From Fistulifera solaris (Eukaryota > Bacillariophyta > Bacillariophyceae > Naviculales > Stauroneidaceae): a stretch of 64,000 nucleotides of DNA. The position numbers were made by a program, and so were the translations under genes. The notes under the pieces are model-generated. The model searched no databases. It saw only the letters and a list, made by a program, of their open reading frames with translations, and was not told the DNA's origin. Each line of letters opens with the position of its first letter. Within the stretch, counting starts at the first letter, position 1. Shown piece by piece: positions 2,908 to 63,373 of the stretch. The stretch covers positions 186,001 to 250,000 of the forward strand of contig AP026169.1 of assembly GCA_030295235.1 (NCBI GenBank), written 5' to 3'.

Positions 2908-3625
2908 TTAATACTCACTTAGAGAACGGGTACTAGACGAGGTTCTTGCTTGCAGTTGCAAACGCTGTTTTGACGCTGCAAGGTCTGAGAGGAAGACCAG
3001 TTCCTTCGAAGCGGTGTTCACGCGTGGATGTTGCAGTTGCATGAGAAGTTTGTTAATGTTGTCGGCGGTGAGAAGTTGTTGCCGCAATTGCAGATTTGGC
3101 ACAGATTTATCGTGAGCAAGACAGAAGTCACTAGCCCCTCGTTTGGATCGAAGTACCGCTTCCCTGAGCTGCGCGTTCTCTCTACGAGCAGCCTCAATTT
3201 GAGTCTCCAGCTTTGCTGCAGCACGACAACTTTCTTGATAGTCTTTCGATAGGGATGAAACGGTTTTCTATGCACGAATAAGAAGAGGATCGATTGGTTA
3301 GTACTGGTAGTGCGAATGCGGGAAAGGCCTTCTAGTTAATGGCATTCGCTTACCTGCAAGTCGGCAATGATCTCCTTGCGTCGCTGGCGAGACTGAAAAG
3401 CAGCAAGACGGTTTGCGGCACGTCTCGCCTTTTGCGGTCTGCTTCGGATACATTCCCTTTCTGAGCGGCCTCGAGCTTCGCTTCAAGGAGAGCCGTTTCA
3501 CACAGTGATCCTTTCTTCACCAATCGCCGTCCATCGGATCTGCGTCGATCCTCAACAACCGCCACACCACTTGGCTTTTCACTCGACTTGCATGAAGTTG
3601 ATTCAAAGTTTGCTGCAGTCGACAT
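2908..3625 (-). CDS. bZIP transcription factor, one apparent 1-base frame break
   Basis: The minus-strand product holds a bZIP basic region, NRLAAFQSRQRRKE, matching N-x7-R, and the first zipper Leu lies ten residues after that Arg, as expected. A second leucine follows one heptad later, then a long helical stretch (ETQIEAARRENAQLREAV) and a C-terminal helical tail. Exon 1 runs from ATG 3625 to 3354. An intron at 3353-3268 (GTAAGC...TAG) joins DLQ to KTV. Exon 2 ends with TAA at 2908. Exon 1 has a one-base frame break: its N-terminal part (MSTAANFES...) and the basic region lie in different frames. The probable point is the four-T run at 3430-3433. With one more base both exons are whole codons and the protein is 210 residues. 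An intron ending just before the basic region is possible but lacks a pyrimidine tract. Presumed nuclear DNA-binding dimer on ACGT-core sites. Confidence 0.82.
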
Positions 3626-4103
3626 TGTTTTCGAGAATGAAGAAGCCCCAAAGACGCAACGCAACAAGTGACATAAACCGATCGAGTTGGGTGTTTTATG
3701 CGCGTGTTGAGAGGTAGAAATCGGGTAAACGATCCAAGACCTCGCGTTAAAAGCCTACCAGATATCATGCAGGAATAATCCGGTCTTTGTCATGTTCAGT
3801 TTTCGCAATACGTACGATTTTTACGTAAGGCGCACGTAGGATTATACAAGTTCCGAGACAAAATTTCTGGGTTTCCCATACAGTATTTCTGTTGCATCAC
3901 ACCAACTTCTGGCGGAGTTTCGTCAAAATTGGCCACTATACATCGAAATGTACAAATTACCAGTGAAAAGGCTAGACGTCGATGATGCAATGATGCATGA
4001 TGCCTGATGCCTGTTTGGATTGTACTATTTGGGAAATTGTGCTGGATGCGTTCGTGATGCATTTGCGTGCATTGTAAAACTGGCGGTGATCGGCGACCTT
4101 TGC

Positions 4104-4186
4104 AAGGGAAGGACGTTAAAATTCTGCCTCCCAGTACAAGATTCTACGTAGCGTGTACGACGAGGCAGAATTTTAACGCCGTTCCC
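4104..4186. repeat. Fold-back inverted repeat (hairpin)
   Basis: Two perfect 17-base arms, CGTTAAAATTCTGCCTC at 4114-4130 and its reverse complement at 4162-4178, flank a 31-base loop. Outside the arms, GGGAAGGA and CCGTTCCC extend the pairing with two mismatches. The structure could be a small fold-back transposon remnant or an RNA hairpin. No target-site duplication was recognised. Confidence 0.75.
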
Positions 4187-9266: not shown

Positions 9267-12200
9267 ATGTCTGGCTACGGAAGTGGTCAGTTCAACGACA
9301 ACGCAGAAATGCACGCAGAGATGCATGCGGAGCTTGAACGTCTTCGTCGTCAACAGCAGGCCGCGACTTGGTCTGCGTTAGCAGCAAGAGCTCGACAGCA
9401 AGGTTATCCTGCAGCGCCAACTGCACATTTGGGTTTGATGGGTGCCGGAGACGCTTCGGCTTCGTACTACGCTCGCGCTCCTGGTTACGCCAGATATGCG
9501 GGATTGTCGGATCCTGCTTACGGAGCCCGAGTGCAAGCCGACCAGAACCAGCTGGCACAGCTCCACCATGCCGTTTTTGGAAGACAACCTGCTGTTCAGC
9601 AGCTGGCAAGCAATTACACATATGCAGCTCCGGCTGGTGCTGTGACTGGGTACGCAGAGACTGCCACACCTACCCATCGATCGCCTGCCGAACAACAAAG
9701 GTTTCCCTACGCACTCAACGCGGGTGCTACCCCTTCTCCGGCCTCATATGATAACTATGCATCTCGCAATTCCTACGTTAGTCCACCGAAACCAGCGTCG
9801 ACCTCAGCTTCCGCGCAACGTCCTCCAACTTCTACTTTGAGCTCCACCAAAGTCCCAGCGAAGTCAACACCCAAATCAAAAGCTACCCCAGGGAAAAGCC
9901 CTGCCGTGACTCCCGCCAGTTCCAAAACTACTCCGAAAACTCCCAAATCAGGAAGTAGTTATGGTAGCAGCATGTCCAAGGCGAGCGAGAAATCGAGAGA
10001 ACAGAATACGCCAAAGCGTGTCGCGACGAGTGATGGCAAAATCCTTGTCGATGGGAAAGAAACTTATTACTCGGGACATGTACCTATTGGTTTTGAAGAA
10101 GACAAATATTGGATTTCAGAGCTACAGGTGTATTTGCGGTCGCATTTTGCCGAAGCTTTTGCTGCTACGGAGGAAGATGTTGCCGCTCCGATGCATGGTC
10201 GGAACAAGCCGATCGTGTTGGGACAGGTGGGAATTCGTTGTATGTACTGCAAAGGTAAGGCATTGATTCATTCTATGTTGCTCTTCATGCTATTTATAAC
10301 CGTTCCATTAATATACTGCAGGAGATAATCCAGCCGAACGAGGACAGCAATCGACGTCGTACCCCAGTCAAATAAGTGGCATCTATAATTCGGTGCAGCA
10401 AATGCTGCGTCTTCACCTAGATTGCTGTCTTTCTATGCCTGTAGAAGTACGCTCGAAGATAGAATTCATGAAAGAGTGTTGCAATAGCCGGGGTGGTCGC
10501 AAGCAATACTGGATAGAGGCGGCAAAGCGCCGGGGATTAGTCGACACGCCAGATGGTATCCACTTCGGACGTGACCCATTGGCGCCATTGCCAGATCATG
10601 TAGGGCCCTCGGTGACAAAGGACGGTCGCCGAAAGCGTGCGATCAAGACCTCCGAAGAAGCTGTTGTGGCTCCCCCTCAAGAACTTCCGCCACCACCCCC
10701 CTCCTGTAGACGATAGGCCTCTGGTGTTTGAGGAAGATCGTCCACTCATCAGTGATTATTTGTATTTGACACTCGAGCAAATGGCTCCGTGTACTTTAAT
10801 GGAAGCAGATCGGGTCGGATGCTACAAAACTCGTAAAGTTGGCTTTCCCGGTTTAGCCTGCAAGCACTGCGTGGGTCAAGCTGGTTGTGGTCGATATTTT
10901 CCAGCTTCGGAAGCGTCGCTGTCACAGACGACCACTTCACAGACCATCATGAATCACGTTCGCAACTGCCGTCGTTGCCCTACCGAAATTCGCGAAAATT
11001 TTGAAGTCATGAAGCGCAATCGAATGGGGCCCGATGGGAAGCGCGCTGATAAACCGAAACATGGCGGGCGCAAGGTTTTCTTTCATAGATTGTGGTGCCG
11101 TATTCAAGGTTTGGAGATTCATGAGGAAGAGATAAAACTCGACGACCCTGCACCCAAGAGGACAAAGCCTTATGCGAAGAAATCGAGAAAAAGATCATAT
11201 GATAGCGACGGTGAGTCCGGTGAGGATGACGGCGAGGCACTGACTTCCGAGGGTGAATGTGACTCCGAGGCCGAAAGCGAGGCCAGTGAGAAGAAACCGA
11301 GCAGGCGCAGATCGTCCCCGGGAAAAAGGAAGTCAGAAAAAGAATTTTGGTTTGAGGGGTGTGTTCGTCTCACCAAAACAGACGACCCACATTGGCTTTC
11401 TGAAATGGAATGCTTCGCCAGAAGTGACCTCGTCGAAATATTTAGTCTCGACGATGAGGATGAACTTGAAAGTTACACTGGTAGAAAGGAGCCAGCAATT
11501 GGGCAAGTGGGTATCCGATGCGCCTTCTGCAAGTCAATTCCGCCTCAAGATCGGCCCACTGGGTCTGTCGCGTTTCCGGAGTCGCTCTCAGCTATTCATT
11601 TGAAGGTGGCAGACATGATTCGATTGCACTTTCCAAACTGCCCATCACTGTCAGACGAAGCCAGAGAAACTTTCAAGTCGCTTCGTGGCTTTGATGCAAA
11701 AGTAGCTAGCGATGATGCGCAGCAGTACTGGGTTGATGCTGCCCGTGACATTGGATTGGCCAACTTTCCAACGGATGGGAAAAAGAGCAATGCTTGGGGA
11801 CTTGCTTTCCGGCGTGATCCCCTTCAGCCAAGTCCAGCAGATGAGTTAGATCTTGAAGTCGGTAACCCGAAGGATGTTTCCAACAAGAGTTCTCTGGTCA
11901 AAATTGACGATAGGGGATTGTGCACTGATCAAGTAATGCTTCTGCTGCGCCAAGTCATCCCCTGTCGCTTTAAGAAGAGCGACCGCCGTTCTGGGCCTGG
12001 TTACCGGGGTAGAGATAGATCTATGGGGTTCCCTGGCTTGTCGTGTAAGCACTGTGCAGGAAAGAACACTCTGGGTCGCTACTTTCCAGTATCTGCGAAG
12101 AACATGACCGATTGCACAAGCAACTCGTTACAGACTCATATTGCCTCTTGTGTCTATTGTCCCGAACCCATTCGCGCTTCATTGGCGTATCTTAGTCATC

Positions 12201-13260: not shown

Positions 13261-14822
13261 ATGTCGGATTCTGATGATAGTTCGAATGCCGGCCCGACGG
13301 AGGAAGACCGAAAAATGAAAGAGATGCTGGCCGAGTGGGATGAAAAAGATGACGACGACGATGTTTACGAAGACTCGGACGACGACGAGGATGATGACGC
13401 TGCCAAGGCCAAGAAGATCGCTCTACTGAGCGCTGCTGCTGACTCTGAAGAAGAGGAGGAGGACTCCGATGAGGACGAGGAAGAAGACGATAAGGGAGAC
13501 GATGGTGACGAGGAAGAAGACGATAATGGAGACGATGATGACGGGGAAGAAGACGATAAGGGAGACGATGATGACAGGGAAGAAGAAGAGGAGGAGGAGG
13601 AGGAAGAAGAAGAAGAAGAAGATGAAAGTCAGGAAGTAGAAGAGGAGGAAGAGGAGCAACCGGCGGCAGAGGAAGAAGTATCTGAAGACGATGAAGTTCC
13701 AGTTGAAAAGAAAAAGAAAAGACAAAAAGGAGAAGAAGGAGAAGAAAGAAAAAAAGGAGAAGAAGGAGAAGAAGAGTAAAAAAGACAAGAAGAAAGATTT
13801 CGATTCTGATGATGAAGCTGATGAAGAAGAAACTGTCGACAGAGGTGAAGAGATTGTAGATACCTTGAAAAGAAACCCAAGAAGAAGAAAGAAAAGGTCA
13901 AGACGAAGAAGATAACGGATGTAGACGAAGACGACGATGAGGAAGCTATCAAGATGAAGCAAATGATGGCAGGTTGGGACTTGGCCGGAGATGATGACGA
14001 TGATGACGATGATGAAGACGCAAGTGACGACACCAGTGAAGAGAGCGAGCGTGAAGTCATTCTTGACGACAACGTGCTCGATCATATCGTCCTTGCCGCA
14101 CCTGACCTCGACGACGCTATCAAAGAGTTTAAGAAAAGAACTGGAACCGAACCAGTCGTTGCTGGAACCATCAAGGGCCTGGGTATCAAGTGCGCTCGTG
14201 CCTCTTTTAATGATACAAGTTACATCGAGATCATCGCCCCGGATCCAAAAGGACCGGGTCCCATTGGTGAACTTCTCAAGTCAAAGGCGATCACTGAGCT
14301 GACTCCTTTCCACTATGCCATCAGATCGTCTAAAACTGAGACCTTGAAGGATGAAGTAAGCCAGTTCGGCTACACGCCAGACCATATTACTATGTTTGGA
14401 GCTAAGGCTGATGGCAGTCCTCGCAAGTGGGAGATGCTGTACTTGTACGGCCACAAGATGGGCGGTATCTGCCCCTTTTCATTAACTGGAACAACTCAGA
14501 CCACCCATGTGCTACGCTCCCGGTTGTGGGCAAATTGAAGAAGTTTACTATTCGCGCTCCTGAAGGCGATCCTGTACATGAACTACTTGAGCACGCTGGA
14601 GTTGACTCTATCAATATCGAGACAGGTAAACCAAAGATTTCTTTCCAATTTAGCAGCGCAGAAGGAACAGTAAAGTTCTCTGCTAGCAAGGCCGTAGGGT
14701 TCAAATTCCCTGGCTTTGAAGACGAGGACGGAGAAGATGCTAGTGATGAAGACATGGAATTCGAGTCTCCAGCTGCGCCCGAACTTCTTCCTGTTGGTGA
14801 TATCGATGATGATAGCGAATAA
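13261..14822 (+). CDS. Acidic protein with glyoxalase-like domain
   Basis: The N terminus is extremely acidic (Asp/Glu runs over about 150 residues), then a Lys/Glu-rich segment, then a second acidic stretch, and finally a glyoxalase-like domain from LDHIVLAAPDLDDAI (about base 14076) to the C terminus. The domain carries HIVLAxxDLDxA, an ASF-DTSYIEII strand and PFHYAIRS, as in the Glyoxalase_3/VOC-like family. Metal-binding His and Glu may be kept but the reaction is unknown. The frame changes three times: near 13708-13725 (one base extra), near 13863-13866 (one short) and at the four-T run 14476-14479 (one short). Protein character continues across each, so I treat it as one gene. The acidic-plus-basic N terminus recalls nuclear or nucleolar chaperones. 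The end is convergent with the NAGS gene. Confidence 0.72.
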
Positions 14823-19849: not shown

Positions 19850-20586
19850 TTACCAGCCTCCGTCGTCTTCAAGCTCACCAACGGATTGACGATAAGCTTC
19901 TGCCTGCCAAGCGGCTGCAGTATCTAATTCATACGGTTCAGACACCAATACTTCATCGTCTGCGCATTTCGCGAGCTGAATACGGGGTGAGGCACGGCAA
20001 TCACGGAAAAAGAGGATTTTCATGCAATCTTCAAGAAGAGCCCGAGCTTCGCCTTCTGTTAGGTCGGGTCGCCACTTCTCTCGCAACAAAGGCATCGCCA
20101 AGTAAGCTCCGAATCCTGTGGCAATAAAGTTGTCGCGGACTGTAGTACCAATTTTGTCCACGCTCCCCAAGAAAGGCTTTCCTTTCAGATCTTTTCCAGC
20201 AACCAATAACTCGTTCCAAAAGGGTTGAATTTACTTCGGCGACTGTAAAGGAGCATGCGAAGATAATTCCAAGTATTTTCCGCGGTCATGCCGCTTTCTT
20301 CCGTGTACAACGAGTCCATGACACTTGTAGTAGTTTCTTCCAAGGCCTTGGCCTTGAGAATTTCCAGAATACGCTGAAAGTCCGAATATTCACCAGATGC
20401 GCCGATTACAGTCTTTTCCACGGCATGTAGACGAGGAATGTTTTGAGCCTTTGCCATACTACCGTACGAAAGCAACGTATCAGCTGCTAACAGCACACCT
20501 TTGTCGTAAACGATACCCAAAACGGAAGTTCCTGTTACCATCGGTTGCACAGTGTGTTGACGCGAAGGAACAGCGGCCGGGAGCAT
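19850..20586 (-). CDS. PSMB4: 20S proteasome subunit beta-4 (PSMB4/PRE4 type), one frame break
   Basis: A structural beta subunit of the 20S core. The N-terminal part reads TGTSVLGIVYDKGVLLAADT, with the proteasome beta fold, YGS and NIPRLHAV; the C-terminal part reads FLGSVDKIGTTVRDNFIATGFGAYLAMPLLRE, then LTEGEARALLEDCMKILFFRD, which fits PSMB4 rather than the catalytic beta subunits. The residue after the propeptide is Thr, but the subunit is non-catalytic in other eukaryotes. A single-base break lies at the four-A run 20218-20221 (forward strand): one more base would join NPF to WNELLVAGKD, the usual family sequence. About 250 residues. Start is the first ATG; the neighbour on the left is convergent. 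Confidence 0.9.
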
Positions 20587-21179
20587 TGTAATCAGATAGA
20601 GAAGGGAAAAGAGTCGAATGGTAGAGGATGCGTTAGCTTTCGAGTATCACTTTGTTCAAGAGAAAAGATATCTATTACAGTATTCACTTTCTAAAAGTAA
20701 TACTATGTTCTTGCTGATGCTGCGGAATGCGCCGGCATCTTTCGGTCGCCTTCAGTGAACATCATTGGGACCAGATGATGACGATGCATGCGTGACTGAA
20801 CATGGGGAGATGGTACGACACCGTCCGTTTGCCCATCCAAGTTTTTCGTCTCAGGACTTAGAGGTGTGGCTTTTTCACTAGTGCCTGAAAGCTTCACCGG
20901 CCCACTACTGGGCTTGATGGGCTCCATTTTTTAGTGTGGACCTTTATGTACCCTATGGGGCCCAGGGCCTTTTAGGGCTCGATGGGCTTATGAACAGGCC
21001 CAGTACAAATTGCACGTAGGTCTCTACGTGCTTTCTTTTGTAACGCCATCGTCGCCGGATCGACGCGGCGCCGTTTTTTTTCTGCAAAAAAAATCGTTAT
21101 TCAATCGAAATGAAAACGCCGATTCATTTCCATCTCATGATCCGGTTTTCTTTTATAACAAATAAAACATGACTTAAGC
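20587..21179. other. Intergenic region holding transposon ends
   Basis: No host gene. It contains a hAT-like inverted end (20859 on) and GGGCTC/GGGCCC-type subterminal words (20895-21000). A run near 21070 is T- then A-rich. Confidence 0.5.
20807..20893. repeat. hAT-like terminal end with shared flank
   Basis: TAGAGGTGTGGCTTTTTC at 20859 matches the left end of the element at 25806 and, inverted, the right end at 26395. The about 40 bases before it (ACACCGTCCGTTTGCCCATC and on to TCAGGACT) also match the flank at 25765-25805, so the two copies share sequence on both sides of the end. Confidence 0.65.
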
Positions 21180-22614
21180 ATGGAAACTGGAAACGATGCC
21201 ATTAGCCGCGCCGATCTGAACGCTGCGTTCAAGAAGGACTATCCCTGCCTCATGAAAAAGAAAGCTTGTCTTCCAGTAATCATCGTCGGCTCCTCGGATA
21301 AAGGAAAAGGCAAATGGCTCGCCGAATTTGTCAATTTAGACGGAATAAGAAATGGCGTAACGCAAGTGGCTTTATCAAAGCAACTCAAGAAGGTCACAGA
21401 TAAGGATTCTCATCCTCTTGTGAAAGAAGTTGGCGAGGATGACGAAGACGCGATCAACAAAGAAGAAACTGTTAGTACATTTCTTGTTGCTGGGTACACC
21501 CAGCCTGAAACGTCATCGAGTCCGAGCTTTCAGGAATCGGAGGGTAGCCTCGATGCAGCAGAGACCAGTCTATTCGACGATAACGTTTCACAGGAAATTT
21601 CAGGAGTCCAAGATGGCACAGAAGAGGAGGTAGAACACGAGACACGAAACGATTTAGATAATGAGAGTGAGGATGAAGAGGAAGATCCTGACTTAGAAAA
21701 TGAAGAAGATCTTTGACCATATCGTCCAGATGACGAGGAGGGTGAAGATGATGGAGATGACTTGGAATTTTAGAGCTATTGCAGAAGAACAACCGGCGGA
21801 GGATAAGCACAGAGAGAAATAGAATCGATGCTTGACCAAAAAAGCAGCTCTCATTGAAATGGGGTCAAATGTGAAATGCAATCCGCCCAAGCACCAAGGC
21901 AGTGATGGAGGTAGTCAGGTTCAACAGCGCAGAGCTCCAAGGCGTACGGGCTATGTTGTTGCAAGTAATCGTGATAGAGATCATGACTATGCCGGTTGGG
22001 AAGTTGAATATGAAGACGAACCCGTCAAATTTGTGAAATCGACTGAACTTATTTCCGTGAAAGACGATCGAGTCTTTTAGTGGACTTATGTCGACGATGT
22101 TTTCCCATCAACCCAGTTTTGCCTTTCAGAGAAACTGGGGTTGTTGGATATAACTTTGCCGCATTTAAAAAGGAAAATCTGGATACACCAAAGACGACTA
22201 CGGTTTTCCATTTCTCACCCTGTTGCAACACCTTTGGCCATCGCCCGCAAATGGGGATGAGTTCTCTCACCCGTCTTGACAACAGTATGTGGGACGTCGT
22301 TGTGACTGCTTATAAACGCAACCGAGCCACAACCATCCGTGCTCCCGAGCACATCGATCTAACGACTTCTTCTGATGGGGAAGCAGAGGCTCCTTTCACT
22401 ACAAGAAGCTCTGTTTGGCGTCAATGGTGATGCGGATGACACGGTGGGAGAAGAAGGTGTCAGCAATGCCGAGGAGCATGAAGTTGCTTCTGTAGCCTCC
22501 ACCGCAAACAAGAACGTCACCGAAGCAGTCGATAGCGAAAGCGATGACAGCAGTGTCGACTACGGCTTGTCACAAGACTTTCTTCTCATGGCGGAGATTA
22601 TTGGAGAGGAATGA
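21180..22614 (+). pseudogene. Decayed gene of unknown family, probably transposon-related
   Basis: Coding character lies in successive frames on the plus strand. It begins at ATG 21180 with a basic-hydrophobic block (KKKACLPVIIVGSSDKGKGK), then an acidic stretch. Around 21832-22080 it gives RRTGYVVASNRDRD, then YAGWEVEYEDEPVKFVKSTE. Around 22080-22370 it gives FPINPVLPFRETG, then VVGYNFAAFKKENLDTPK. It ends with an acidic Ser-rich segment to 22614. At least three frame changes and an internal stop make it broken in this copy. The neighbourhood (hAT ends on both sides, an LTR element 100 bases downstream) suggests an old transposon gene or a host gene caught in the island. I do not recognise the family. 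Confidence 0.5.
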
Positions 22615-22717
22615 AGAACCTTGATGATTGATGAGGTAGTAAACTACGTACTGGGGTATATGAAATTCAATAAGTAGTCACTATAACCTTTTGTGTACTA
22701 TAATTTTCGGTTCCTGG

Positions 22718-22881
22718 TGAACGATCTATGTCGTTCGTGATTAGATCTGGCGAGTCTTAGGAGATAGCGAGCCAGCCTGGCTTTAGCGATCCCTCGCCAA
22801 CTGAATGGCTTGGAAATGCCAAGAGGCATGCGTAGCGATAACCTTTTATAATTTCGTGTTTTTCCTTTGTGAGACCTTGCA
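22718..22881 (+). repeat. 5' LTR
   Basis: 164 bp, TG...CA ends, nearly identical to the 3' copy. Confidence 0.92.
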
Positions 22882-25403
22882 CTATTCGAATAGTCGCCTA
22901 AGAAGCAGAGGAGAGACTTCAAAGATAGCTTTAAGATTCAAGATGTCGCTTAACAGCAACAAGAAGATGTCGACGGTGGAGTCGCGTGTGCGTGAAGTAT
23001 GAGTGTGCTTTCAAGAGCGAGGAGATGGAAAAGAGAAGTTGATTCAGCGATATGAGACCTACGACAAGAAGGAGACGGTGCCTAAGTTTTCAGGACGCGA
23101 AGGAGCCGGAAGGTTTGGTTTATGTTTACAAACGGTTCAAGAACGTGGCGAAGGAGTTGAACTTTGAATCAGGACCAGAGTTGTTTAGTGAGTTCTCTAA
23201 GTGCGTCACGTCGACGGCGGAAGATAGTTGGCGGTGTTGGTGGAATTGATGACGGAGAATGTTGAAAGGACCCCAGCTTTGTTCGAACAAACCTATCAGG
23301 CATTGTTGGCTAAGTATTGTTCGCCGGACACTCGTGACGTCCTAGTTGATTATCTACGGGCGATTCCTGCAAGAAGCCGCACAATGCGGATGTTCGAGTT
23401 CACAGCGAGCGCATTCGCATCTTGTGTAACTTGGCTAACAACTTGCCGGGGACGATTCCCCTTTTGAATGAAGCGATGCGTAAGAAGATATTGCATGATA
23501 CCTTTCCGGAGCAGTGGCAGTTGGAATTCTCGAAGTTTCGCAGTTATGCTCAGGCGACGGAAGAAGAGTTGGTTGAGTACATGTGCATTGAGAAGACATC
23601 AGCGGATAGCAGAGAATCTCGCAAGAGAATGTTTAATGGTCATGCAGGTGGTTCCCCTTCTCAACGCTGGACGCTTTGGAGGTCGAGGACCTGGTCGTGG
23701 AATCGGAAATAATGGTCGGTTTGGAGGTCGTGGTTCTAATCGAGGAAATTTTTTTGGCAACGGCTTTAACAATCATGGCCATCAGAATCGCGGTGGCGGT
23801 TTTAATCACAATAACCATCAAGGGTCGAATGCTTACGGACAAGGAAATAATAATTATCAAAAGGTAAACTTGTCGCTTTGATAAATTGAAAGTTCCTGAC
23901 GTTGATGATGATGAGATTTATTCGTACGAAGAAGAAGTTCTATTGCCACCAACGGAGGAAGAGATCAATCGTACGATGCCATGTCGGTTCTCGTGTTGTC
24001 GGAATGATGAGTCGCACAAGATTGTGGATGATACAGAGTTGTTGGAAGCGTATTTGAATCATCCAGAGTTACAGGTAATGCAGAACCCGATTACGATACA
24101 GAACATTCAACAACATCAGCAACAGGACCAGCGCTTGTATCAATTGTGTCATGACCCGGCAACAGCGTGGCAGTTCCCGCTCAAGCAAGTTCAAGAACGA
24201 GAAGTGATATGTTACAAACCAAAGCGAGATAGCCCTGAGAATGATTGGAAGATTGCCTTACCGGCGGCGTTGTTGGATAAGGTGATCGTGTGGTATCATT
24301 TGGTATTGGGACATTGCGGAAGCACAAGATTGTATGAAACTATTGGACGGAGGTTTGCTATTCCTGGTTTAAAGAAACGGTGCGAAGAGTTCAAGTGCAG
24401 CAGTTGTCAAATGAATAAGCAACTGGGGCCAGGATACGGGCATTTGCCTCCCGCGACAGCGCGTTGTTGCCCTGGTATGAAGTTGCAGTGGATTTGATTG
24501 GACCTTGGAAAGTTAAGATTGGACAGCAGGAAGTGGAGGTCAATGCACTTACGTGTATTGACCCGGTAACTAACCTTGTTGAGATTGTGCTGTATTGAAA
24601 ACAAAACTGCGGCTAACATTGCGCGTCATTTTGAGAACTGTTGGCTAGCGCGATACCCAAGACCTAACAAGTGCATTCATGACAACGGCGAATTCATTGG
24701 ATTCGATTTTCAAGTCATGTTGGAAAAGAACGGTATCAAAGATTCTCCCACAACAAGCAAGAATCCTCAAGGAAATTCGGTCTGTGAACGACTGCATCAA
24801 ACAGTCGCTAACATCCTTCGAACTACCTTACCTGAAGAACGAAGCGCCGTCACAAGACGAAGCTTTACGTGCTATTGATGATGCAATTGCGACTACGATT
24901 CACGCTACACGATGTTCGGTTTCAAGATCGTTGAGTTGTTCTCCAGGAGAGTTGGTATTTCATAGAGACATGCTTCTAGATGTTCCTGTGATGGCTGACT
25001 TAGTTAATATTCAACAGCGAAGACAAGTTATGATTGACGAGAATCTACGAAGACAGAATCGAAAGAGAATTGAATACGAGTACAAGGGTTGGCGGTGAAG
25101 TTCTAATCAAGAGTGACAACCCTTCAAAGCTGGAGCCTCGGGCTCATGGTCCTTATGTTATTACGGGCGGTTTATACGAATGGAACACTTGATGTTCGGG
25201 CGGAATGCGCAAGTCACTGAGCGATTGAATATTCGTCGAGTGATTCCGTTTAGACGCAAGTAAGAGCGTGCACAAGAGCCAATAAGGTGCACGGCTGGTA
25301 TATATAACTCCCCTCTGCAGTTCGTACGGGAGAGTAAAATACCACGGGTTGGAATACATGGAATAAAGATTGCTTCGGGACTTGCAATCTTGAGGGGGAA
25401 GAG

Positions 25404-25566
25404 TGAACGATCTATGTCGTTCGTGATTAGATCTGGCGAAGTCTTAGGAGATAGCGAGCCAGCCTGGCTTTAGCGATCCCTCGCCAACGGAATGGCTTGG
25501 AAATGCCAAGAGGCATGTAGCGATAACCTTTTATAATTTCGTGTTTTTCCTTTGTGAGACCTTGCA
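25404..25566 (+). repeat. 3' LTR
   Basis: 163 bp, preceded by a purine tract and followed by the CCTGG target-site copy. Confidence 0.92.
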
Positions 25567-25680
25567 CCTGGGCTCCATCATGGTTTTGTATAGGCCTGTA
25601 TTGTACTTTTCTTCAGGCCCAACAAACCCAATTTTGCGGCCCAAGACGACCACGCTCCGTGAGCCGCAAAGGCTTTCAGG

Positions 25681-25905
25681 CACTAGAACTAGCTAGTCAC
25701 TAGTCACTTCACCAGAGTTGAAAATTTCACTTTTTCACTTCACTCACTTTTCACTAGATGGTATGACACCGTCAGTTCGCTCATCCAAGTTTTTCGTCTC
25801 AGGACTAGAGGTGTGTGGCTTTTTCACTAGAACTAGTCACTAGTCACTTCACTAGAGTTGAAAATTTCACTTTTCACTTCACTCCCTTTTCACTCCACTT
25901 GATTC
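25681..25905. repeat. Tandem copy of a subterminal repeat unit
   Basis: The unit CACTAG...TCACTAGTCACTTCAC, followed by AGAGTTGAAAATTTCAC and CACTTCACTC words, occurs at about 25681-25755 and again at 25826-25900. Between the copies lies the flank and hAT-like end also seen at 20807-20893. Dense CACTAGT/CACTT words are typical of hAT subterminal arrays. Confidence 0.65.
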
Positions 25906-26395: not shown

Positions 26396-26403
26396 ATCAG
26401 GAA

Positions 26404-28790: not shown

Positions 28791-28791
28791 A

Positions 28792-39137: not shown

Positions 39138-42100
39138 TTACTCGTCGTCGAGCTCCTCTTGTGGAATAGAGCGAAGCGGTTGTTTTCGCTTGGGCTTTTT
39201 GCTCTTTTTAGCTTTTGCAGCTTTTCTGCCCCACGGCCTCATTCTCGGCCCTCAATGGCTGCAGTTTCGCTTATCTTGTTCTCCCACTCGTCCAAGAATT
39301 GACGAGATTCTGGCTTTGCGGACTTTTTGGCTTTCCCCACAATGATCAAAAACTGCTTCTTCACGTCTTCGTTGCAAAGAGCGTCTTTATAAAGTTTGAA
39401 GCTATCGGACAAGCACTTGATTGTCTTCTCGTTCATTTTAAGTTGTGATAGGCAAAAACAAGATCAGCTGTTTGATCTAGGGATGAGCACTTCGGGAAAC
39501 GTTGGCAAAGTTTTTCCGTCAGCATCTCGTTCTGTCGGTCTTTCTTGACGTAGCCAAGCAAGAACGACATGATACCCTGAAATCTTCCTTCTGCATTGCT
39601 TGTTGGCTGAGTTGGCTGATGATATCTGGTAAAAGATTGTAGACAGGGTTGTTGCTCCTTTTGCTGAGTTCATGGAACAGTAACCGAGACATATCCCGAA
39701 TTCGAGGATCATTATCTCTTAGACAAAGAGCAATTTCACAGACTTGGCCCTTGACTTTGACCATGTCGTTCAAGACCAGATGTGTTAAGACCATCAGGGT
39801 GTGTCTTCGAACCTTGGTAGAGTTATCACGTAGACAGGCGTACAGATGAGGTGTGTAAGGTTCTACTTCGTTAGGAAAACGAAAGGCCAGATCCCCTAGC
39901 GCAACAACGGTGTTGGCTCGAAGGGTTGTATCACCAGGTGGCGCTTTTGACAAGGCTGTAAAAGAAGTGGTAGATGCTTCTCGCAGAATTGGCTCGAGAC
40001 ACACATGAATTTAGTCAAAGCTAAAACGGATGCTTCCATAAGAATGTTGGAATCGAACCGCCCTCCTTCGTTAGCCACAACGCGGGCAAGGAGCGGTCCA
40101 AACTTTCCCATGAGTCCCCTATTCAAGATTTCCCTTTCGGATATCTCGGCCATATTCCTTTCATTTTCTGCTTCAGCTGCTTGAGCGATACCCAGTTCAG
40201 CCTCGATATCATCGTCTTCATGAGTACTAGTACGACGTTTGGTCTTATCCGCTTCTTCTTGCATCTTTACGGCACGTTTCGCATTACCTCGTCGTACGCT
40301 TCCACTTAGAGCCTCTGTATATACCAGCAAATTGAGCGAAATTTGTCCAAGAATGTGGAAGAATCGTGCTAGATGAAGTGGGTGGCAAAGAGAATTTCGT
40401 CGTTCAAAGGTGAAATGACTCATAGTGACGATAATAGTACGACAAGCCGCCTCTGGCTCGGGGCAAATAACAAAGAGAGCTTTTATTGCTTGCTCTGCTG
40501 CAGAAAACCATTGGAGAGTATCGGCTTGGTCGGCCTCGAGACACCAGTCACCTTGAGCGACTGTGCACAGCTGCTCCATCAGACGCTCAAGAATCAAATA
40601 TTTGGCATCACTCAAATCGATTTTCGCACGGGGTACTCGTTGCAACAAAACCGCAGCTGCACCAATGGCAGCCCAATCCCGAGAGTCTTCAGCATGATCG
40701 CCTAAAGCCGTATCAAGCAAAAGTTTGAGACGACTCTTACTATCAATGATGCTACGATCAGCAGTGGCGCCCATAGCTATCAGCTGAAGGGCGTTAGTGC
40801 GATTTTCGTGGTCATTTGCTACAGCCGACCATAAAATACCAAAAACTTCGGCAGGAATGCGATTTTCTTTGACCAAATGACATATAGCTTCTTCAATCGA
40901 TGCCAGCTCACTTTTGTTTGCCTTGTCAACAAGTTGAACCAGGTTATTGGCGATGCGCTTACTAGGAAGATTCTCCGTCCCCTCTGATCCAGGAACAGTT
41001 ATGAAAACCTCGACAAATGCTTTCAATACTTCCTCACGAATGGCTACCTCTTGTGACCACATGAGAGCTAGCGCATGTTTCATACCGGTAACTGCACAGG
41101 GTAGTTGAAAGTGCTTCGCTTTTACAAAGAAGCGCAGGGATTCGGTCACATCGGTGGTGTTATTTGATAGCATCAAACTTTCAAAGGTCGATGTAGCGTC
41201 TTCCAAAAGATCGATAAAATCGAGGGCGGATTGAGTAAACTTTAAAGCCAGGGCCTTTGTGCAAAATTCCTTGTCTGCGCTGGAGAGGTTTTCGGTATGT
41301 TCGAGCAGCGTGTCAGCTTCTGATAGAGACGCTGCTAGGGCAGCTCGCTCCACTTCTTGCATCGCGACCGCGTCTTCGGACTCCTCGGCATCCTTCATTG
41401 CTGCTTCATTTGCTCCGCGGATATGTGGGGGCATGTTCTCTTTCATGTACGTATAAAGCTCATTCAACTTCGTGCGATAGGGTGCAGGATCCAGATTTCC
41501 CATGAAAGGATTGTTTTCCAAGAGCTCCGAAATCAGCTGCGATAAGATTCTTGTGAGAGGTTTTGTTGGATCAGTAAGAACTAGGCTTGACATTCATACT
41601 TACCAGCAGCGCTTGTTTGCGAACAATCACAGTCCTATCTTGTAATCGGTCTACCGCCATTCGCGTTACAGGCAAGAAGTGATCCTTCGGTAAACTCTTG
41701 CTTTGAATCAAACTTATCCATGTTCGTAAGACCGTTGCTCGCGTGTATGAGCTAGTGTCGTAGATCCGTGTAGAAAGAACAGACAACAAATTTTCCCGTG
41801 CTTTGCTTGCATCGAACATGACCGAGTTTTCGGATTCGGCGTTGTTATGTGCTAGTGATTGGAGAATATGGCCGATTGCTGTGATGAGCGCATTGCGCAT
41901 GGTGTATGGTTCGCTGTTGAGAAAGAACATGAGTTGCGGCATATGTTTCAGTACCAAGCGAGGTTGCGATGCAGCAAGGCTTGAGACAAAAGGCGCAACA
42001 TTTTTGATGCCCATGCCGTCTAATCGTGCTACTTCTCGAAGAAGTTCAACCGACAAAGTTTCGCTTTTAGCGCATAACTCAGCCACGATAGTTGACATGT

Positions 42101-46400: not shown

Positions 46401-48083
46401 CTCGGTCCTTTACAGCGCATGTTGATGATTGTTGTCAGATGTAAGTGCAAGGTGTCTGTTGGCATCTGTTCAAAGTGCGATAACCTAAACTGAGTATTTG
46501 TTTCGACGCAAATGAAGATGCCGAAAACCCGTTGTCGCTAAGAGCGCAAAGGTCCGGGCAACGCCTCGATGAGAAAGAAAATGAGTCTAAAGAAGAACTT
46601 GGTAACTACGAGACAGAGCAACTTATTAATGCGATCGCTAAGATCGCGGACTTGTTGAGAAAATGTTGGGGCGTTGCAGGAGCTGGTATCATTTCCTCGA
46701 ACCTTGCCCGGACCAGGATGGGAAAACCGTCGTCTTTAACCCGACGGTTCCAGGGAAAAGCGTGTACGCTCTGTTCGGGTTCGTCGCAATCAATGACTTC
46801 AGCAAGCAATTACGTGTTCTCGGTGATGATGTCATGAAATTGATCAATGACGTGGCTCGTGTCGTTCATGATGAAGTCTTTCGATGGGCGCTTAACGATA
46901 GCGGGCAATGCAACAAGAACTTGGGAGCAGCCTTCTTGATGGTTTTCCGCATCGGCGACTTTTCCGAGGTCCACGAAAAGCAGAGAAGAGCTGCGGCGGT
47001 GGTTTTCAAAGGGCAACAGAAGAAAGCAGTTAGATCACGAAAGCAGAGGTCGAAATTCCGCAGAAGTAGCACAAAACAAATTGAGGGAGGACCAGCTTTG
47101 CAGCTTGCGAGTCTACCTGGAATTCAGTCCTTTGCCGATCGAGCCCTCTTGGGCCTCTTAAAATCGTTTGCCGGTATCCACAGAGATAAACATCTCAGAG
47201 AATGGGAAGGAGATTGGCGGTTGGGTGCAGGGGTTGGGGCTTTTAAAGTGAGTGTGATTTATGGCATGGATGCGGGTTGGGCCGTGGAAGGAGCAGTAGG
47301 TAGTGAGTACAAAATTGACGCCACCTACCTGTCACCTCATGTCAACATGGCCAGTCGCATGATGAGTGCTTGTAAGCAGTATGGGGTGACGATGCTAATG
47401 AGCCAAGCCGTTGAGGAACTTTTGAGTACAAAATTGACGCCACCTACCTGTCACCTCATGTCAACATGGCCAGTCGCATGATGAGTGCTTGTAAGCAGTA
47501 TGGGGTGACGATGCTAATGAGCCAAGCCGTTGAGGAACTTTTATCAAGGACAGCGAGAAGTAAGCTTCGGCACTTGGATACTGTCTACGTGAAGGGCAGT
47601 AGCGTCGCGCAACGCATATACACATATGACTGCAGGTTTGACGGTGTGGACTATTTCTTGTACGAAAGAACCCCCGAACAAGCTGATGCTGAAGCTGCTG
47701 CTTATACCCAATCCATTTGGGACACTGACAAAGATCTCCAAGGGATGAGACAACATGTAGGCGATGATTTTATGGAGAAGTTCAGTGACGGTGTGCAGCA
47801 TTATCTTGACGGAAGATGGACTGAAGCGGTGGAGCTTCTCCAAGATGCTGATGATCTAATGCTTAGAACAGTACTGGAAGAAGGATATGTAGATCACAAG
47901 GCTGATGACTTTGGAGGAAAATTATTTGATCGCACTGGTCAAAGGGGGTGTGACGACGAGATAAACAGAATCAGGAACGACTTTGGCGATGGTGCGTGCA
48001 AGTGCTTGGTGCAATACATGCTTAGGAGAAAATGCAAGCCTCCCAGTGACTGGAACGGTGTCCGCGCATTGATGAGCAAATAA
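43456..48083 (+). CDS. Multi-pass membrane protein with class III nucleotide-cyclase-like domain
   Basis: Seven exons are inferred: 43456-44831, 44889-45274, 45339-45424, 45499-45638, 45693-46238, 46310-46440 and 46518-48083, with introns of 54-77 bases. The N terminus (about 400 residues) is acidic and Ser/Arg-rich. Transmembrane segments are NFLVLCSLIYLFVDVVALAF, FVWLVLLLELLFECM, LELIALLIFVPSMLCIM, and further ones before the extracytoplasmic loop; the last is LFLQLFGLLMLSLVGLTVL. Then come GPLQRMLMIVVRYAENPL and a cyclase-like domain (FGFVAINDFSKQL, GAAFLMVFRIGDF, KIDATYLSPHVNMASRMM). The usual first metal Asp is not where expected, so catalysis is uncertain. One base is missing near 46716, and a perfect 119-bp tandem duplication (47304-47541) breaks the frame. 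Cyclases of this form are common in stramenopiles and ciliates. The last exon also carries a helical tail. Confidence 0.78.
47304..47541 (+). repeat. Perfect 119-bp direct tandem duplication
   Basis: Bases 47304-47422 recur without a difference at 47423-47541, joined at a short T-rich overlap (CTTTT). The unit encodes the conserved cyclase-like stretch KIDATYLSPHVNMASRMMSA and what follows. Because 119 is not a multiple of three, the second copy is out of frame. It is either a real duplication or an assembly artefact. Confidence 0.95.
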
Positions 48084-50840: not shown

Positions 50841-53800
50841 ATGGTACAAGCCGAAATTCCTTTATGGATGTCTCACAATACGGTTTCGACGTCAGACGAT
50901 CCCCAACACAAAGCACTCGCGTTGTGGCAAAATCAACAAAAATGTGCCATTTACAGCATTGACATTTTTGAGCATTTAGTAGCAACAGCGGGAGGAGATG
51001 GGACGGTTAAATTGTGGAACAGTCAAGCCTTATTTGCTGCGGAAGGAAAATCGCATTATACACAAGAAGGAGATTACGCGAGTTCCGGATCGAGTGCCGA
51101 AGAAGAGGACGAGAGTCCTACTCTTCTTCTGAATCATCATCACCAGAATGACACGATCGAGGAACCCGTACACGATTTGAATCAAGCTGTTCGTCGAAAA
51201 AGGATGCTTCACCTCGCAAGCAACTATCATCATCGTCATCATCACCACCACCACCCCGCATCGCCCGAGAAACCATCACTACTGCATCATCGGCATCCAC
51301 ATCCCACCGACTCATCTGTACCCTCTCGGCACACACCGGTTCCTCCGTCTTAGCGGTCCGCTTTGCACCGTCCGGTCGTTATCTGGCATCGGCGGGAGAC
51401 GATGGGGCCGTTTGTATCTATGCTCCTTCTACTTCTTCTTCTTCTTCTTCTTTTTCCTCCAACACGCAATGGTCCCGCATTCGCTTGTGTCGGGGACATA
51501 ATCTCGATGTCGTCGATTTGGCGTGGGCCCCGGATGATTCGCACCTCGTATCGTGTTCTCTCGATTCGGAAACTCCCATTATTGTGTGGAAATTGACCGA
51601 TCTGTCGTCGACCAAATCTATGATTGCCAGTCCGTACAAAATATTAGGAAAAGACGTGCACAAAAGTACCGTCAAGGGCGTTGATTTTGATCCGGCCGGC
51701 TCGTATTTTGCGTCATCGGGAGATGATCCGGCCGTCTGTATCTGGAGAGCGCACGATGATTGGGGTCTCGAGCAACGCATTGATGCGTCGACCGGTATTT
51801 TCAAACAGTGGGGGACCGAATCATCAACGTCCAATCAATCGTTGTTTCGTCGTTTGAGTTGGTCCACCGACGGATCTTTTCTCTGTGCCACCAATGCAGT
51901 GGTCCGTCACAAAAATGTTGCATCGACCATTCGACGAGAAGGATGGAATGTCGGAGCCGATTCGGCGAATTTAGTGGGGCACAAACAACCCGTCGTCGTG
52001 AGTCGGCATGCTTCTTACTTATTGGATGGGCGACGGAAGAAGGAGAATAGTGAGGAAGACGAAGACCATGAGCCAGAAGCTGCCACACTACTGGCATTGG
52101 GAGACCGGCGAGGATTTGTGACCGTGTGGAGTACGAAAAAGTCACGTCCCATTTTCAAACTGCAATGTAGCGAAAGTCGTTGCACGGTGACCGATTTGGC
52201 GTGGGGCAAATATGGTTCCGGTAAAGACATCCAAGATATGGTCCTTTTAGTGTCGCTCTTGGATGGTCAAGTTGTGGCCATTCAATTCCATGTTCCTGAC
52301 GAGCTGGGGCCGTTTTTGAGTTCAGAGGATCAGGCTCGTGTATTTCAACTCCGGTATGGCATTGAAATGGACTCCAGCAGTTTGGGTCAGAGGCGAAAGA
52401 TGCTGGTTGGAAAGGGAAACGGTGCCAGCGATCTGATCGAAAATGCTTTTCAAATGTCTTTGGAAGAATCAGTGGGTAAAACACTTCCCGAAGCAGAAAA
52501 GGACGACCCACCACATGTTGCTCAAAGCTCGCTGCTTTCCTCTAGCTTGGTCCGGAAAAGAGCGACAACAATTTAGGACAAGATCGAAGAAAGCGAGCGC
52601 GATTAGTCCAGGTTGTAAATGACAACCCCACGCAAAGCACAAAACGACTAGAAGGCAACACGCAGTCTAAAGTAAATGAGCTCGATCCATTGCAAGCTGC
52701 ACTTAACGCTGCCGAAAGGGCCACGGATATCCTGGAAGGCGCTGCCTTAGCAGGACAACCAGGACAACCAAGTCGAACAGTTCAGCATGAAAGAGGCCAT
52801 ACCGACAAGTCGCAACAGCACAATCAGTCCAATCACCTGATCAATAACATTGCCTCCTCGGTCCCCTCACCTGTTCTTCCCCATAATACAAACCGTGTAC
52901 ATATCACAACGCTCCCGATAACCAGGGGAAGAAATGGCAATGGAGAACAATCCACAAAAGTAATCGTAGAGTGTACGAATTCCTCCAAAATCCCCTCAGG
53001 AGCCAAGGGCAACCCTGTTCCCTGCATTGACGTTGTGATAAAGAAAGACAATACTGCAACCTGGTCGGATCAGATAGTCGGCACATCCTGTGCGGCAGTA
53101 TCAGCATCGAATCGCTTTTTGGCCATCGGAACTGCCGACGGTTCCATCCAATTGTACGGAACCTCGCCCTCCATTGGATGGCTTTCAGCCAATGCCTTTC
53201 GCTCGCACCCTCCATTAATATGTAGTGGCGCTGTTGTGAGTTTGAGGCTAGAAGAGACGGAAGCTTCGTTGCAGATGCTAGTTGTCACTAGTGACGGTAG
53301 TTTCGGTCTTCACACTGTGTTTCCACGACTATCCCTGGTGAAAAAGGGTTCCATTTTACCACCCATGACTCACATGGCTTTATCAGCGGCATCCAACAAA
53401 GATTTGGTTTATCCACAACTATCTCGGATACAAATCACAAAGAACAATCAGCTGCTGCTACTTTTGTCATTTTCGAATACGAACAGAGAAAGCTGCGGAG
53501 TCGGCGGCTCCGTTCAATCCTTTGTGTACAACGACATGTCCGAACTCTGGATGCGCCTTGCGGATAGTCGTTTTGTTCTTTCGGATTTTTACAGCAGCTT
53601 GCCGTCACGTTCTCCCGCCGGACGTTTGACCGAAATCGACGATTCCGTGAAACTAGGGGCACTAGAATCGACTCTCAAAGCCTCGCACCGCAACGCCAGT
53701 GCTATTTATTTGCAAGGATCGGAAAAATCTGGCAATTTTCTGGCCACTCGAGCTCACTGTGAAGATCGTTTGGCCTGTGCTGTTGCTTTCGAATCGGGAC

Positions 53801-60831: not shown

Positions 60832-61520
60832 TGTTTCTAATCTAAGATCTAGGCCTGATACACGCCAAGTTTAGGGGCGACTGACTTGTTATGTACCAAA
60901 GCAGGAGTTTTGTTTGCATCGCGTTGAATAACATCCCTGGCATCAAATTCGGATGCGTGACAAAAGGTGAAGAAAATGTGTCGCAGACGAAAAAAGAAAA
61001 GAAGAGCGCGGCGCGGGTTGATAAGGACGTTTACTACATAAGTAACACCAGTCATTCACTATATTAAAAACCGTAAAAGAGACTATTACCTAATCTACAA
61101 CGTCTTATTGCCGCGGAGTTGGAAAGTCACATTTAGGTTGCGGTATTTAAGTGTTGCGTACCGGTACGTCATTTGTTTGTGATACTAAAAAGATCCGATG
61201 AGAAACTGGGAAGCTTGGCAGCCGTCCGCTGTCATCAAGCGCGATTTTGCCCGCGCCGCATCTCGCAAATCATTTTGTACATTGATGCGAACAACTTATA
61301 CAAGATACTTGCGAAGGTAAGATTTGACTGATTTGCTCGGAACTGAAAAGGGAACTGATACGACAACACCACGTCTCCTCCCTCTGAATTGGTTTTTGGG
61401 GTCTTTTATCAAAGAGTTCCTCTGAAACCACGCCGTGTTTGATGACGCGAACGGAGTTATTGACTCTCATCATCCTTTGTGTTGAATCTCACTTTCAGGC
61501 ACACAAACTTAAGATTCACT
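60832..61520. other. Divergent intergenic region
   Basis: About 0.69 kb between RAD52 (minus) and the MAN1/Src1-like gene (plus). A GTACCGGTACG word sits near 61159-61169. No gene or RNA recognised; both promoters must lie here. Confidence 0.4.
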
Positions 61521-63373
61521 ATGCCATCATCAGCGCGTAAACGAAAGTCTGACGATGTGTCGGATGCTAGCGACAGCGAGACATACTCGAAGGAGAGTAG
61601 CGACAATGCAAAGAATAAGCGAGGATCGGGCCGCCAGGATCGTACCGAAGACCTCACTCCCCGGCGTAAGAAGGCGCGAACAGAACAGACAGGAAGCATG
61701 GGAATTGAGATTCCAGAGGGGATGACGAAGAAAGAATGGGTGGCGATGCGGAAAAAGAATTGCAGAAGAAGTATGAAGCTGGAGGTATGTTCAGCAAAAA
61801 TGGAATGCCGGCTGTAACAGCGCCTACTGCTGCGAAGTCTCCTGCTACGAAACCTTCTCCCAAGAGAAAGGTACCTTATGAAGCTCCGGCTGCTTCGTCA
61901 CGCCCGGTAAGCCGGCCCCCGTCACTGCCCCGACCGGTGCCTCGCGGGGTAACCCTTTTCCTCGGCGTCCATCGGGCCCTTTCAATTCCCCCTGTTCCGA
62001 ACATGCAGTTTTCAGCTTCCGCCAAAAACAACGGCCCGCATATTCCTGACTTTAGTAAAGTTAATGCTACGAAGTCTCCAACAGAATATCTCTCTCCTCG
62101 TAGCAGCTCATCAGCAAAGGTTGAGTTTGTTGACGAAAGTCCTGCGGGGAGTGTCACAACCAACGAAAACCTGGAGGAGGTTCAATCGCAAGTGGAACCC
62201 CCAACTAACTATGTTGCTCCGGTCGACCGCTCCGATCCAAGCTGGGGCAGATTCCTTTGCGCCATCATGTGCATCTTCGTCATGGGTATTTCACTATTAA
62301 TTGGTTTGATAATTGTTCCCGGTGGATCAGGTGGAAACTTTAAGATGGTGGTTCCAAGTGTCTCGACTTCTTCCACGCGATGCTTTCATGATAATCCAAA
62401 GCCTGTTGAAGAATCTGATGAGGAACCTGTGGTTCCAATAATCGTGGAACGCTGCAAGGGAGTACCATTATCGTCTTGGTTGAGCTGTCCGGAGGGAGCA
62501 ATATGTTCGCAAGGACTTTTACGGCAATGTGCCCATCCAAAGTACTACGATGTAAGCCCTGGGCATGATGAGTGTATACTGAGCATATCCACACAGAAAA
62601 CGATTTCCGACGTTGTGAGTTGGATGGAGCTAGCATCGGTGGTTCATGCGTGTCAACCTGGAGGTAATCCGTATGCCCTTGACAGAGATGGCGCAGGATA
62701 TCCCTCTTTTGGCCTATCTCAAGTGTTGGGCGAGTTGGATATCGAATGGGATCCTGTGCTTATTCGAATTTTGAAAGATCTTGAAGGCGTGATCAAGCTT
62801 GAGCTGCAGCCCGACAACAACTATACAGTCGCGCTGGACGAAAATCATATCGTTGTCCTACCTCGAAAGTGCCGGATCAAAAAGGTACTTGTCGGAGTTA
62901 TGAATGGTACTCTAGGAGCATTTTGGGGTGTCGTTCGCATGCTCTTGGGCTGGTTCCTGCAAGTAAGTTCCATTTACATGGAGTTACTGTTTGAGATTCC
63001 GGCACAAACATTGGCGTTCTCTATCGTTTTACCAGTTGTCGGATGGCTTGTCGTATCGTACCTGCAAACTCGCCGCCGCGAGGCGATCGAGACGAGCTTG
63101 CTGAACAATGACCGGGTATTTGTCCGTCAAGAAGTGTACAAGGTGCTCCGCAGTGAACCCAACAAGAATCACATTGTCTTGCAAGTACGAGATCAGATTT
63201 TGTACGACCCCAATCTCAGTTATCACTCCGACTCGAAAGCCCGTAACCGCGTCATAAAAAAAGTTTGGAGTAAAGTGGTAGCCGATCTACAGAAAGACAA
63301 CCGCATCGTGAAAGCCCGAATCAACACGAATAAGGGTGTATGTGACTCGTGGAAGTGGGGTAGCGACCTTTGA
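61521..63373 (+). CDS. MAN1/Src1-type inner nuclear membrane protein (MSC domain)
   Basis: ATG 61521 starts MPSSARKRKSDD. A basic bipartite-type signal (RRKKARTEQ) and an N-terminal nucleoplasmic region full of Ser/Pro/Lys precede a first membrane segment (FLCAIMCIFVMGISLLIGLIIV). A lumenal part with several Cys follows (CKGVPLSSWLSC, GLLRQC), then a second membrane stretch (FSIVLPVVGWLVVSYL) and a C-terminal winged-helix MSC domain (VYKVLRSEPNKNHIVLQVRD, then WSKVVADLQKDNRIVKAR). This is the Heh/Src1/MAN1 layout at the inner nuclear membrane. The frame changes once at the five-A run 61752-61756 (one base short), so VAMRKK continues as KELQKKYEAGGM. A LEM domain at the N terminus is not evident. 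About 617 residues. Confidence 0.85.

What the first reader, a model, noticed from the sequence alone, without database searches (positions are those of the whole stretch)
3430..61756. Frequent one-base frame breaks in host genes, mostly at homopolymers
I count about 18 breaks in otherwise well-conserved genes, at 3430, 10696, 13711, 13864, 14476, 18506, 18938, 20218, 31656, 38514, 39242, 39436, 39580, 39960, 46716, 51254, 52556 and 61752. In each, family similarity continues in the neighbouring frame. Roughly 14 are explained by one missing base, four by one extra, nearly always within a run of identical bases. Cullin-4, ATG5, RAD52 and others show none. This fits uncorrected homopolymer errors in a long-read assembly better than gene death; biological alternatives are alleles of a diploid clone or programmed slippage.
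Basis: partly seen in the sequence, partly recalled or inferred. Interest (0 to 1): 0.75.

Follow-up and report, generated by a model that had tools for sequence, protein, structure and literature searches.

The report
Nanopore sequencing errors in diatom genes
The broken genes in this stretch of a diatom genome are very probably misread single letters from nanopore sequencing rather than dying genes, because those that could be checked are whole in another reading of the same species.

Summary
The frame breaks are in the sequence, but they are almost certainly an artefact. The window is from the allodiploid diatom Fistulifera solaris. It fits an Oxford Nanopore assembly (Fsolaris_ONT_v03reference, GCA_030295235.1; inferred). 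A homeologous contig (C23, mostly about 88% identical) is in the same assembly.

Against them the window has 3,591 identical codons, 0 amino-acid mismatches and 8 single-base gains or losses. These genes hold 7 of the 18 listed sites; all 7 are in frame in the published proteins. The C23 copy of HIRA shows 1,051 identical codons, 0 mismatches and 3 missing bases against its own published protein.

Of the other 11 sites, 7 are clean one-base differences from C23; 4 (3430, 13711, 13864, 61752) are weaker.

Of 28 one-base coding indels between the copies, 23 lie within 3 bases of a run of 4 or more; 9 put the window out of frame, 13 C23, 6 could not be assigned. Constraint is equal in broken and intact genes (omega 0.095 against 0.100). 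Four of the 8 errors recur at the same place in both homeologs, pointing to systematic errors.

The parts
3425..3435 (-). listed break 3430, bZIP-like gene; same bases in C23; unproven
   Evidence: weak bZIP_1 match in the downstream frame
10696..10702 (+). frame break, one base more than C23 in a C run
13711..13780 (+). listed break 13711 in a purine-rich lysine/glutamate stretch; frame change in both copies; unproven
13868..13892 (+). listed break 13864: one base fewer than C23 at 13872 and two fewer at 13892; weaker
14474..14478 (+). frame break in a Glyoxalase_3-domain gene, one base fewer than C23
18502..18508 (+). frame break, one base fewer than C23
18933..18943 (+). frame break, one base more than C23 in an A run
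20217..20223 (-). frame break, one base fewer than C23
31653..31656 (-). frame break in an amino-acid transporter (Aa_trans), one base more than C23
38510..38518 (+). frame break in a mitochondrial carrier gene, one base fewer than C23
   Evidence: codon with one base more than published protein P0121, in both copies
39246..39250 (-). frame break in condensin subunit 1 (listed as 39242)
39457..39459 (-). frame break in condensin subunit 1 (listed as 39436), also in C23
39576..39578 (-). frame break in condensin subunit 1 (listed as 39580)
39962..39964 (-). frame break in condensin subunit 1 (listed as 39960)
46715..46717 (+). frame break in a nucleotide cyclase gene (published name FisN_8Lh104); same bases in C23; not a long run
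51195..51197 (+). frame break in HIRA (listed as 51254), also in C23
   Evidence: P0001 against window and P0003 against C23
52556..52560 (+). frame break in HIRA, window only
61748..61756 (+). listed break 61752 at an A run; same bases in C23; unproven

Best explanation
The breaks are residual single-base insertion and deletion errors of an Oxford Nanopore consensus. The genome is that of the allodiploid diatom Fistulifera solaris; the two subgenomes are assembled as separate contigs and both carry such errors. Base calling misjudges the length of short runs and of bases next to runs. Where the local sequence is the same in both homeologs, the same error can be made twice; elsewhere it is made in one copy only. 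Shown: three of the genes are in frame in published proteins of the species, for 7 of 18 sites, with no amino-acid mismatch; both copies are hit; broken genes are under normal constraint. Inferred: that the assembly is GCA_030295235.1, that the published proteins come from the older assembly Fsol_1.0, that base calling and not some later step made the errors, and that the 11 untested sites have the same cause.
For: (frame-aware alignment): window against published HIRA P0001 1,078 identical codons, 0 mismatches, 2 codons short of a base; window against condensin P0121 1,202/0/5 (3 short, 2 with an extra base); window against cyclase P0183 1,311/0/1. C23 against HIRA P0003 1,051/0/3. (Codons split by introns are not in these counts.) The published proteins are listed with contigs of 410,687 and 445,009 bases, unlike C24 (916,092) and C23 (957,500), so they come from another assembly. 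Assembly identity: G000 has 51,715,745 bases in 61 contigs; PMC12159174 (passages and section 3 part 1 seen) lists F. solaris as 62 sequences, 52 Mb, citing Fsolaris_ONT_v03reference. Spectrum: 28 one-base, 8 other frame-changing and 68 in-frame indels in coding interiors against 74, 102 and 50 in noncoding; one-base against other frame-changing, Fisher p = 9.6e-5. Of the 28, the window leaves its frame at 9, keeps it at 13 (so C23 is off) and 6 are unassigned. 23 of 28 lie within 3 bases of a run of 4 or more, expected 17%. Omega 0.095 in blocks with a listed break, 0.105 with a C23 break only, 0.100 with none. A/T runs of exactly 6: 214 seen against 281 and 276 simulated (order 2, order 3), of 7: 69 against 97 and 85, while runs of 4 and 5 are not short; PMC8486125 (abstract and passages) reports that nanopore reads get runs mostly right up to length 5 (4 for human and high-GC bacteria) and underestimate longer ones.
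Against: No reads were available, so run lengths were not counted directly. 11 of 18 sites were not tested against the other assembly. 4 of 8 proven errors recur at the same place in both homeologs, which independent random error would not give; it needs a systematic cause. Some affected sites are not in long runs (46716, 14476, 20218, 39960). 3 of the 13 indels assigned to C23 (55295, 56951, 58203) have stops in the window's frame within 150 bases, so they may lie at gene ends. The Nanopore origin rests on the assembly's name and size, not on a read file. The paper describing the ONT assembly (Maeda 2022) was seen only as a reference; the one describing the older assembly (Tanaka 2015) is not held, so I do not know from a read source how the older assembly was sequenced.
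Confidence: 0.97

Rival explanations
1. The genes are dying: real frameshift mutations in one or both subgenomes after hybridisation, as duplicated genes are lost.
For: The genome is allodiploid, so one copy could be spared; a 119-base exact tandem duplication that shifts the frame of the cyclase copy at 47304-47541 may be a genuine lesion.
Against: Omega is the same in broken and intact blocks. Other frame-changing indel sizes are rare in coding interiors (8 in 35.9 kb aligned, against 102 in 8.7 kb of noncoding). The genes are in frame in published proteins at all 7 tested sites. Both copies are hit. Zero in-frame stops were seen in either copy, but the segmentation itself punishes stops, so that is weak.
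Confidence: 0.015
2. Programmed translational frameshifting or transcriptional slippage keeps the proteins whole from broken DNA, conserved in both subgenomes at the shared sites.
For: 6 of 18 sites have no indel between the homeologs; substitutions between copies follow the new frame beyond the break at 12 of 18.
Against: No common motif by eye: bases are missing or extra, in all four letters. At 3 of the 6 shared listed sites (39436, 46716, 51254) the published proteins read through in one frame, so the DNA of that assembly needs no slippage. One condensin gene would need five events.
Confidence: 0.01
3. The breaks are differences between alleles or strains, so that both assemblies are right.
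For: I did not check that both assemblies come from the same culture.
Against: 0 amino-acid mismatches beside 3,591 identical codons (window) and 1,051 (C23 HIRA), apart from the indels; real allelic difference would bring substitutions with it, and the frame-destroying changes hit HIRA in both subgenomes.
Confidence: 0.005

Closest known systems
Residual indel errors in long-read (Oxford Nanopore) assemblies that fragment genes (PMC12007338, PMC8812927: start of abstract seen in the listing only; PMC8486125: abstract and passages)
   Same: Single-base gains and losses at or beside short runs, no amino-acid substitutions in the genes compared, excess of missing bases, shortage of A/T runs of 6.
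   Different: Half of the proven errors (4 of 8) have the same bases in two homeologs about 12% apart, which an allodiploid genome lets one see.
Pseudogenes after allopolyploidy (recalled)
   Same: Open frames interrupted while similarity goes on in the next frame; a second copy exists.
   Different: Constraint is undiminished, indel sizes are wrong for decay, and the tested frames are whole in published proteins.
Programmed ribosomal frameshifting, as in Euplotes (recalled)
   Same: Protein continues in the neighbouring frame; some sites shared between homeologs.
   Different: No recurrent motif seen and no frame change in the other assembly at tested sites.

Membership tests
Uncorrected long-read consensus errors | The same locus in an independent assembly of the same species is in frame | tested here: met
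   at protein level: 7 of 7 listed sites that could be tested, and 3 of 3 breaks in the C23 HIRA copy; the other 11 listed sites not tested
Uncorrected long-read consensus errors | Single-base indels dominate and substitutions are absent | tested here: met
   8 one-base events and 0 amino-acid mismatches beside 3,591 identical codons (silent substitutions not testable from proteins); 28 one-base against 8 other frame-changing indels between copies
Uncorrected long-read consensus errors | Enrichment at homopolymers | tested here: met
   23 of 28 within 3 bases of a run of 4 or more against 17% expected; A/T runs of 6 fewer than simulated
Uncorrected long-read consensus errors | Read pile-ups disagree with the consensus | not testable with these tools
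   no reads held
Uncorrected long-read consensus errors | Assembly made from nanopore reads | tested here: inconclusive
   size and contig count fit an assembly named Fsolaris_ONT_v03reference; the window's accession itself is not given
Pseudogenes | Relaxed constraint (raised omega) in the broken copies | tested here: not met
   0.095 with a listed break, 0.100 with none
Pseudogenes | Lesion present in independent sequence of the same species | tested here: not met
   absent at 7 of 7 tested sites
Programmed frameshifting or slippage | A recurrent slippery motif at the breaks | tested here: not met
   contexts at the 18 sites differ in base, direction and run length; by eye, no motif program was run
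Programmed frameshifting or slippage | Genomic DNA itself is out of frame | tested here: not met
   published proteins in frame at 7 of 7 tested sites; their DNA was not seen
Spliced introns mistaken for breaks | GT...AG interval of at least about 45 bases at the break | tested here: not met
   the aligner allowed introns and placed 9 in window condensin (2) and cyclase (7, one of them spanning the 119-base duplication) and none in HIRA; none at the 7 tested breaks. A candidate break at 41585 did prove to be an intron

The most novel reading that the evidence does not exclude
One or more of the three untested breaks that have the same bases in both subgenomes (3430 in a bZIP-like gene, 13711 and 61752) is real in DNA and is read through by a conserved frameshift or slippage mechanism in this diatom.
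Probability: 0.02. Interest if true: 0.6.

Novelty: not a real feature. Interest (0 to 1): 0.12.

Why it matters
It matters as a warning, not as biology. In the three genes compared (chosen because they looked broken) the window holds 8 indels beside 3,591 identical codons, about 0.74 per kb. Between the copies, one-base coding indels run at 28 per 35.9 kb of aligned pair, about 0.39 per kb per copy; that misses shared errors and includes some real changes. If the window is typical (not measured), the genome holds some tens of thousands. Gene sets built on such an assembly may be split or given false introns: in PMC12159174 (section 3 part 1) the two Fistulifera genomes have the lowest (F. pelliculosa 0.32) and joint second-lowest (F. 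solaris 0.8, with Cyclostephanos tholiformis) single-exon to multi-exon ratios of the raw table, and F. solaris has 26,808 genes there against 20,455 (9,007 pairs plus 2,441) in the older annotation (PMC5935921 passages). That link is inference, and the ratio is not specific: an existing Thalassiosira pseudonana annotation has 0.66. Claims of gene loss or homeolog decay from this assembly should be checked against the older one.

Tried and rejected
Considered and rejected: alleles (the partner contig is a homeolog, mostly about 88% identical, not an allele); introns (aligner with introns); gene death; programmed frameshift. Candidate extra frame changes from the substitution model at 15928, 16694, 30877, 56607 and 59685 were looked at but not resolved; 41571 is an intron. 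I first took 3430 to be an ordinary exon-intron boundary and then, from both frames, a shared break with an extra base; it stays unproven.

The 186 kb of C24 upstream of the window was fetched for a wider comparison of the two contigs, but its C23 partner could not be fetched, so it served only in the run-length count. Expected run lengths come from order-2 and order-3 models fitted to the same sequence, so the shortage at length 6 is supportive, not decisive. On reports of these errors in this assembly: of the rows listed, no title is about them; only listings were seen there, and only open-licence papers are searched.

Full report
What was checked. The window is bases 186001-250000 of contig C24 in a genome of 51,715,745 bases in 61 contigs. 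A second contig, C23, is collinear with it over most of its length in 13 blocks of 81.4 to 92.5% identity, mostly about 88%. The best protein matches to three of its genes are Fistulifera solaris proteins at 92 to 100% identity to my joined queries. F. solaris is described as allodiploid with homeologous chromosome pairs (PMC13276009 passages) and a GC content near 45 to 46% in the chromosomes shown (PMC5935921 passages), as here. So C24 and C23 are the two homeologs. PMC12159174 (passages; section 3 part 1) gives the F. solaris assembly as 62 sequences and 52 Mb and cites Fsolaris_ONT_v03reference, GCA_030295235.1, and the older Fsol_1.0, with Maeda 2022 as the source paper; I infer that the former is the window's assembly.

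The sites against the homeolog. At 12 of the 18 listed places the window differs from C23 by one base within about 10 bases; at 6 (3430, 13711, 39436, 46716, 51254, 61752) it does not. At one of the 12, 13864, a 2-base difference 20 bases on cancels the one-base difference, so it is not clean. A Viterbi segmentation of the pairwise alignment by codon substitution, which did not use the list, changes frame without an intron-sized gap at or within about 50 bases of 12 of the 18. Where it does, substitutions between the homeologs go on respecting the new frame, so the protein is conserved beyond the break.

The sites against published proteins. Three homology searches gave F. solaris proteins listed with contigs of 410,687 and 445,009 bases, unlike C24 and C23: HIRA P0001 and its homeolog P0003, condensin subunit 1 P0121, and a cyclase-domain protein P0183. 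A protein-to-DNA aligner that allows introns and single-base shifts gave: window HIRA 1,078 identical codons, 0 mismatches, 2 codons one base short; C23 HIRA 1,051, 0, 3 short; window condensin 1,202, 0, 3 short and 2 with an extra base; window cyclase 1,311, 0, 1 short. C23 condensin was aligned to the other homeolog's protein P0121 and shows 61 ordinary mismatches and 2 single-base events, at the same places as two of the window's. HIRA needed no introns in either copy. So 7 of 7 listed sites in these genes are in frame in proteins from another assembly of the species. I saw proteins only, not that assembly's DNA.

Statistics. Within coding interiors of the window-C23 alignment (35.9 kb aligned) there are 28 one-base, 8 other frame-changing and 68 in-frame indels; in noncoding sequence (8.7 kb) 74, 102 and 50. 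One-base indels are thus over-represented among frame-changing ones in genes (Fisher p = 9.6e-5), as errors would be and decay would not. At least three sets of the coding indels (49347 with 49354, 51813 with 51819, 54617 with 54620) lie side by side and cancel, and are probably real changes. Of the 28, gaps fall 13 in the window and 15 in C23. Judged by whether the window keeps its frame, 9 break the window, 13 break C23 and 6 lie too near another frame-changing indel to assign; 3 of the 13 (55295, 56951, 58203) have stops within 150 bases in the window's frame and may lie at gene ends. 17 of 28 change a base in a run of 3 or more and 23 of 28 lie within 3 bases of a run of 4 or more; random coding positions give 16% and 17%. 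Nei-Gojobori omega is 0.095 for blocks with a listed break (5,178 codons), 0.105 with a C23 break only (1,891) and 0.100 with none (4,545); the blocks were cut by the segmentation, so stop counts (0 and 0) are not independent evidence. In 350 kb of this genome, A/T runs of exactly 6 number 214 against 281 and 276 simulated, and of 7, 69 against 97 and 85, while runs of 4 and 5 are slightly above expectation and runs of 8 to 11 are too few to judge. PMC8486125 (abstract and passages) reports that nanopore reads handle runs mostly well up to length 5 and underestimate longer ones, mainly by deletion.

Shared errors. Of the 8 proven events in the window, 4 (39220, 39458, 46716, 51196) have the same bases in C23. 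At under one error per kb, chance coincidence at the same base is negligible (reasoning, not computed), so these errors depend on local sequence. At 46716 the context is not a long run; sequence-specific deletion errors outside runs are also described in PMC8486125. Cross-mapping of reads between homeologs during polishing is a possible contributor that I could not test.

What is not shown. Three listed sites (3430, 13711, 61752) rest on my reading of frames in both copies, and 13864 is complicated by the second indel. Seven sites rest on the homeolog alone: there one copy must be off, and for 6 of them the segmentation changes frame in the window; for 18506 the C23 frame reads on where the window's does not. 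No reads were examined.

Verdict. The breaks are not a biological feature.

Noticed in passing
window 47304-47541: Exact 119-base tandem duplication inside the cyclase gene, absent from C23; it shifts the frame. The published protein of this copy (P0183) skips about 47300-47553 as if it were an intron, which suggests that the older assembly has the duplication too: possibly a real lesion of one homeolog.
   Followed up: partly
window 20821-29091: About 8 kb present in the window and not aligned to C23; an open frame at 23868-24494 matches Integrase_H2C2 above its cut-off and gag_pre-integrs just below, and a 78-base direct repeat lies at 22753 and 25440: probably a retrotransposon insertion in one subgenome.
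   Followed up: partly
C23 210128-215990 (between the partners of window 7280 and 7274): About 5.9 kb present in C23 and absent from the window.
   Followed up: no
   Followed up: yes
C23 partners of window 8168, 15223, 15297, 15596, 17548, 53348, 53876, 61916, 61993, 62707: C23 carries its own frame-changing one-base differences where the window's frame is kept and free of stops for 150 bases either side; the two in HIRA (53348, 53876) are confirmed by P0003.
   Followed up: partly
window 13447-13673: Acidic repeat of 9- and 12-base spacing in the gene with three listed breaks; the two homeologs differ there by in-frame indels.
   Followed up: no
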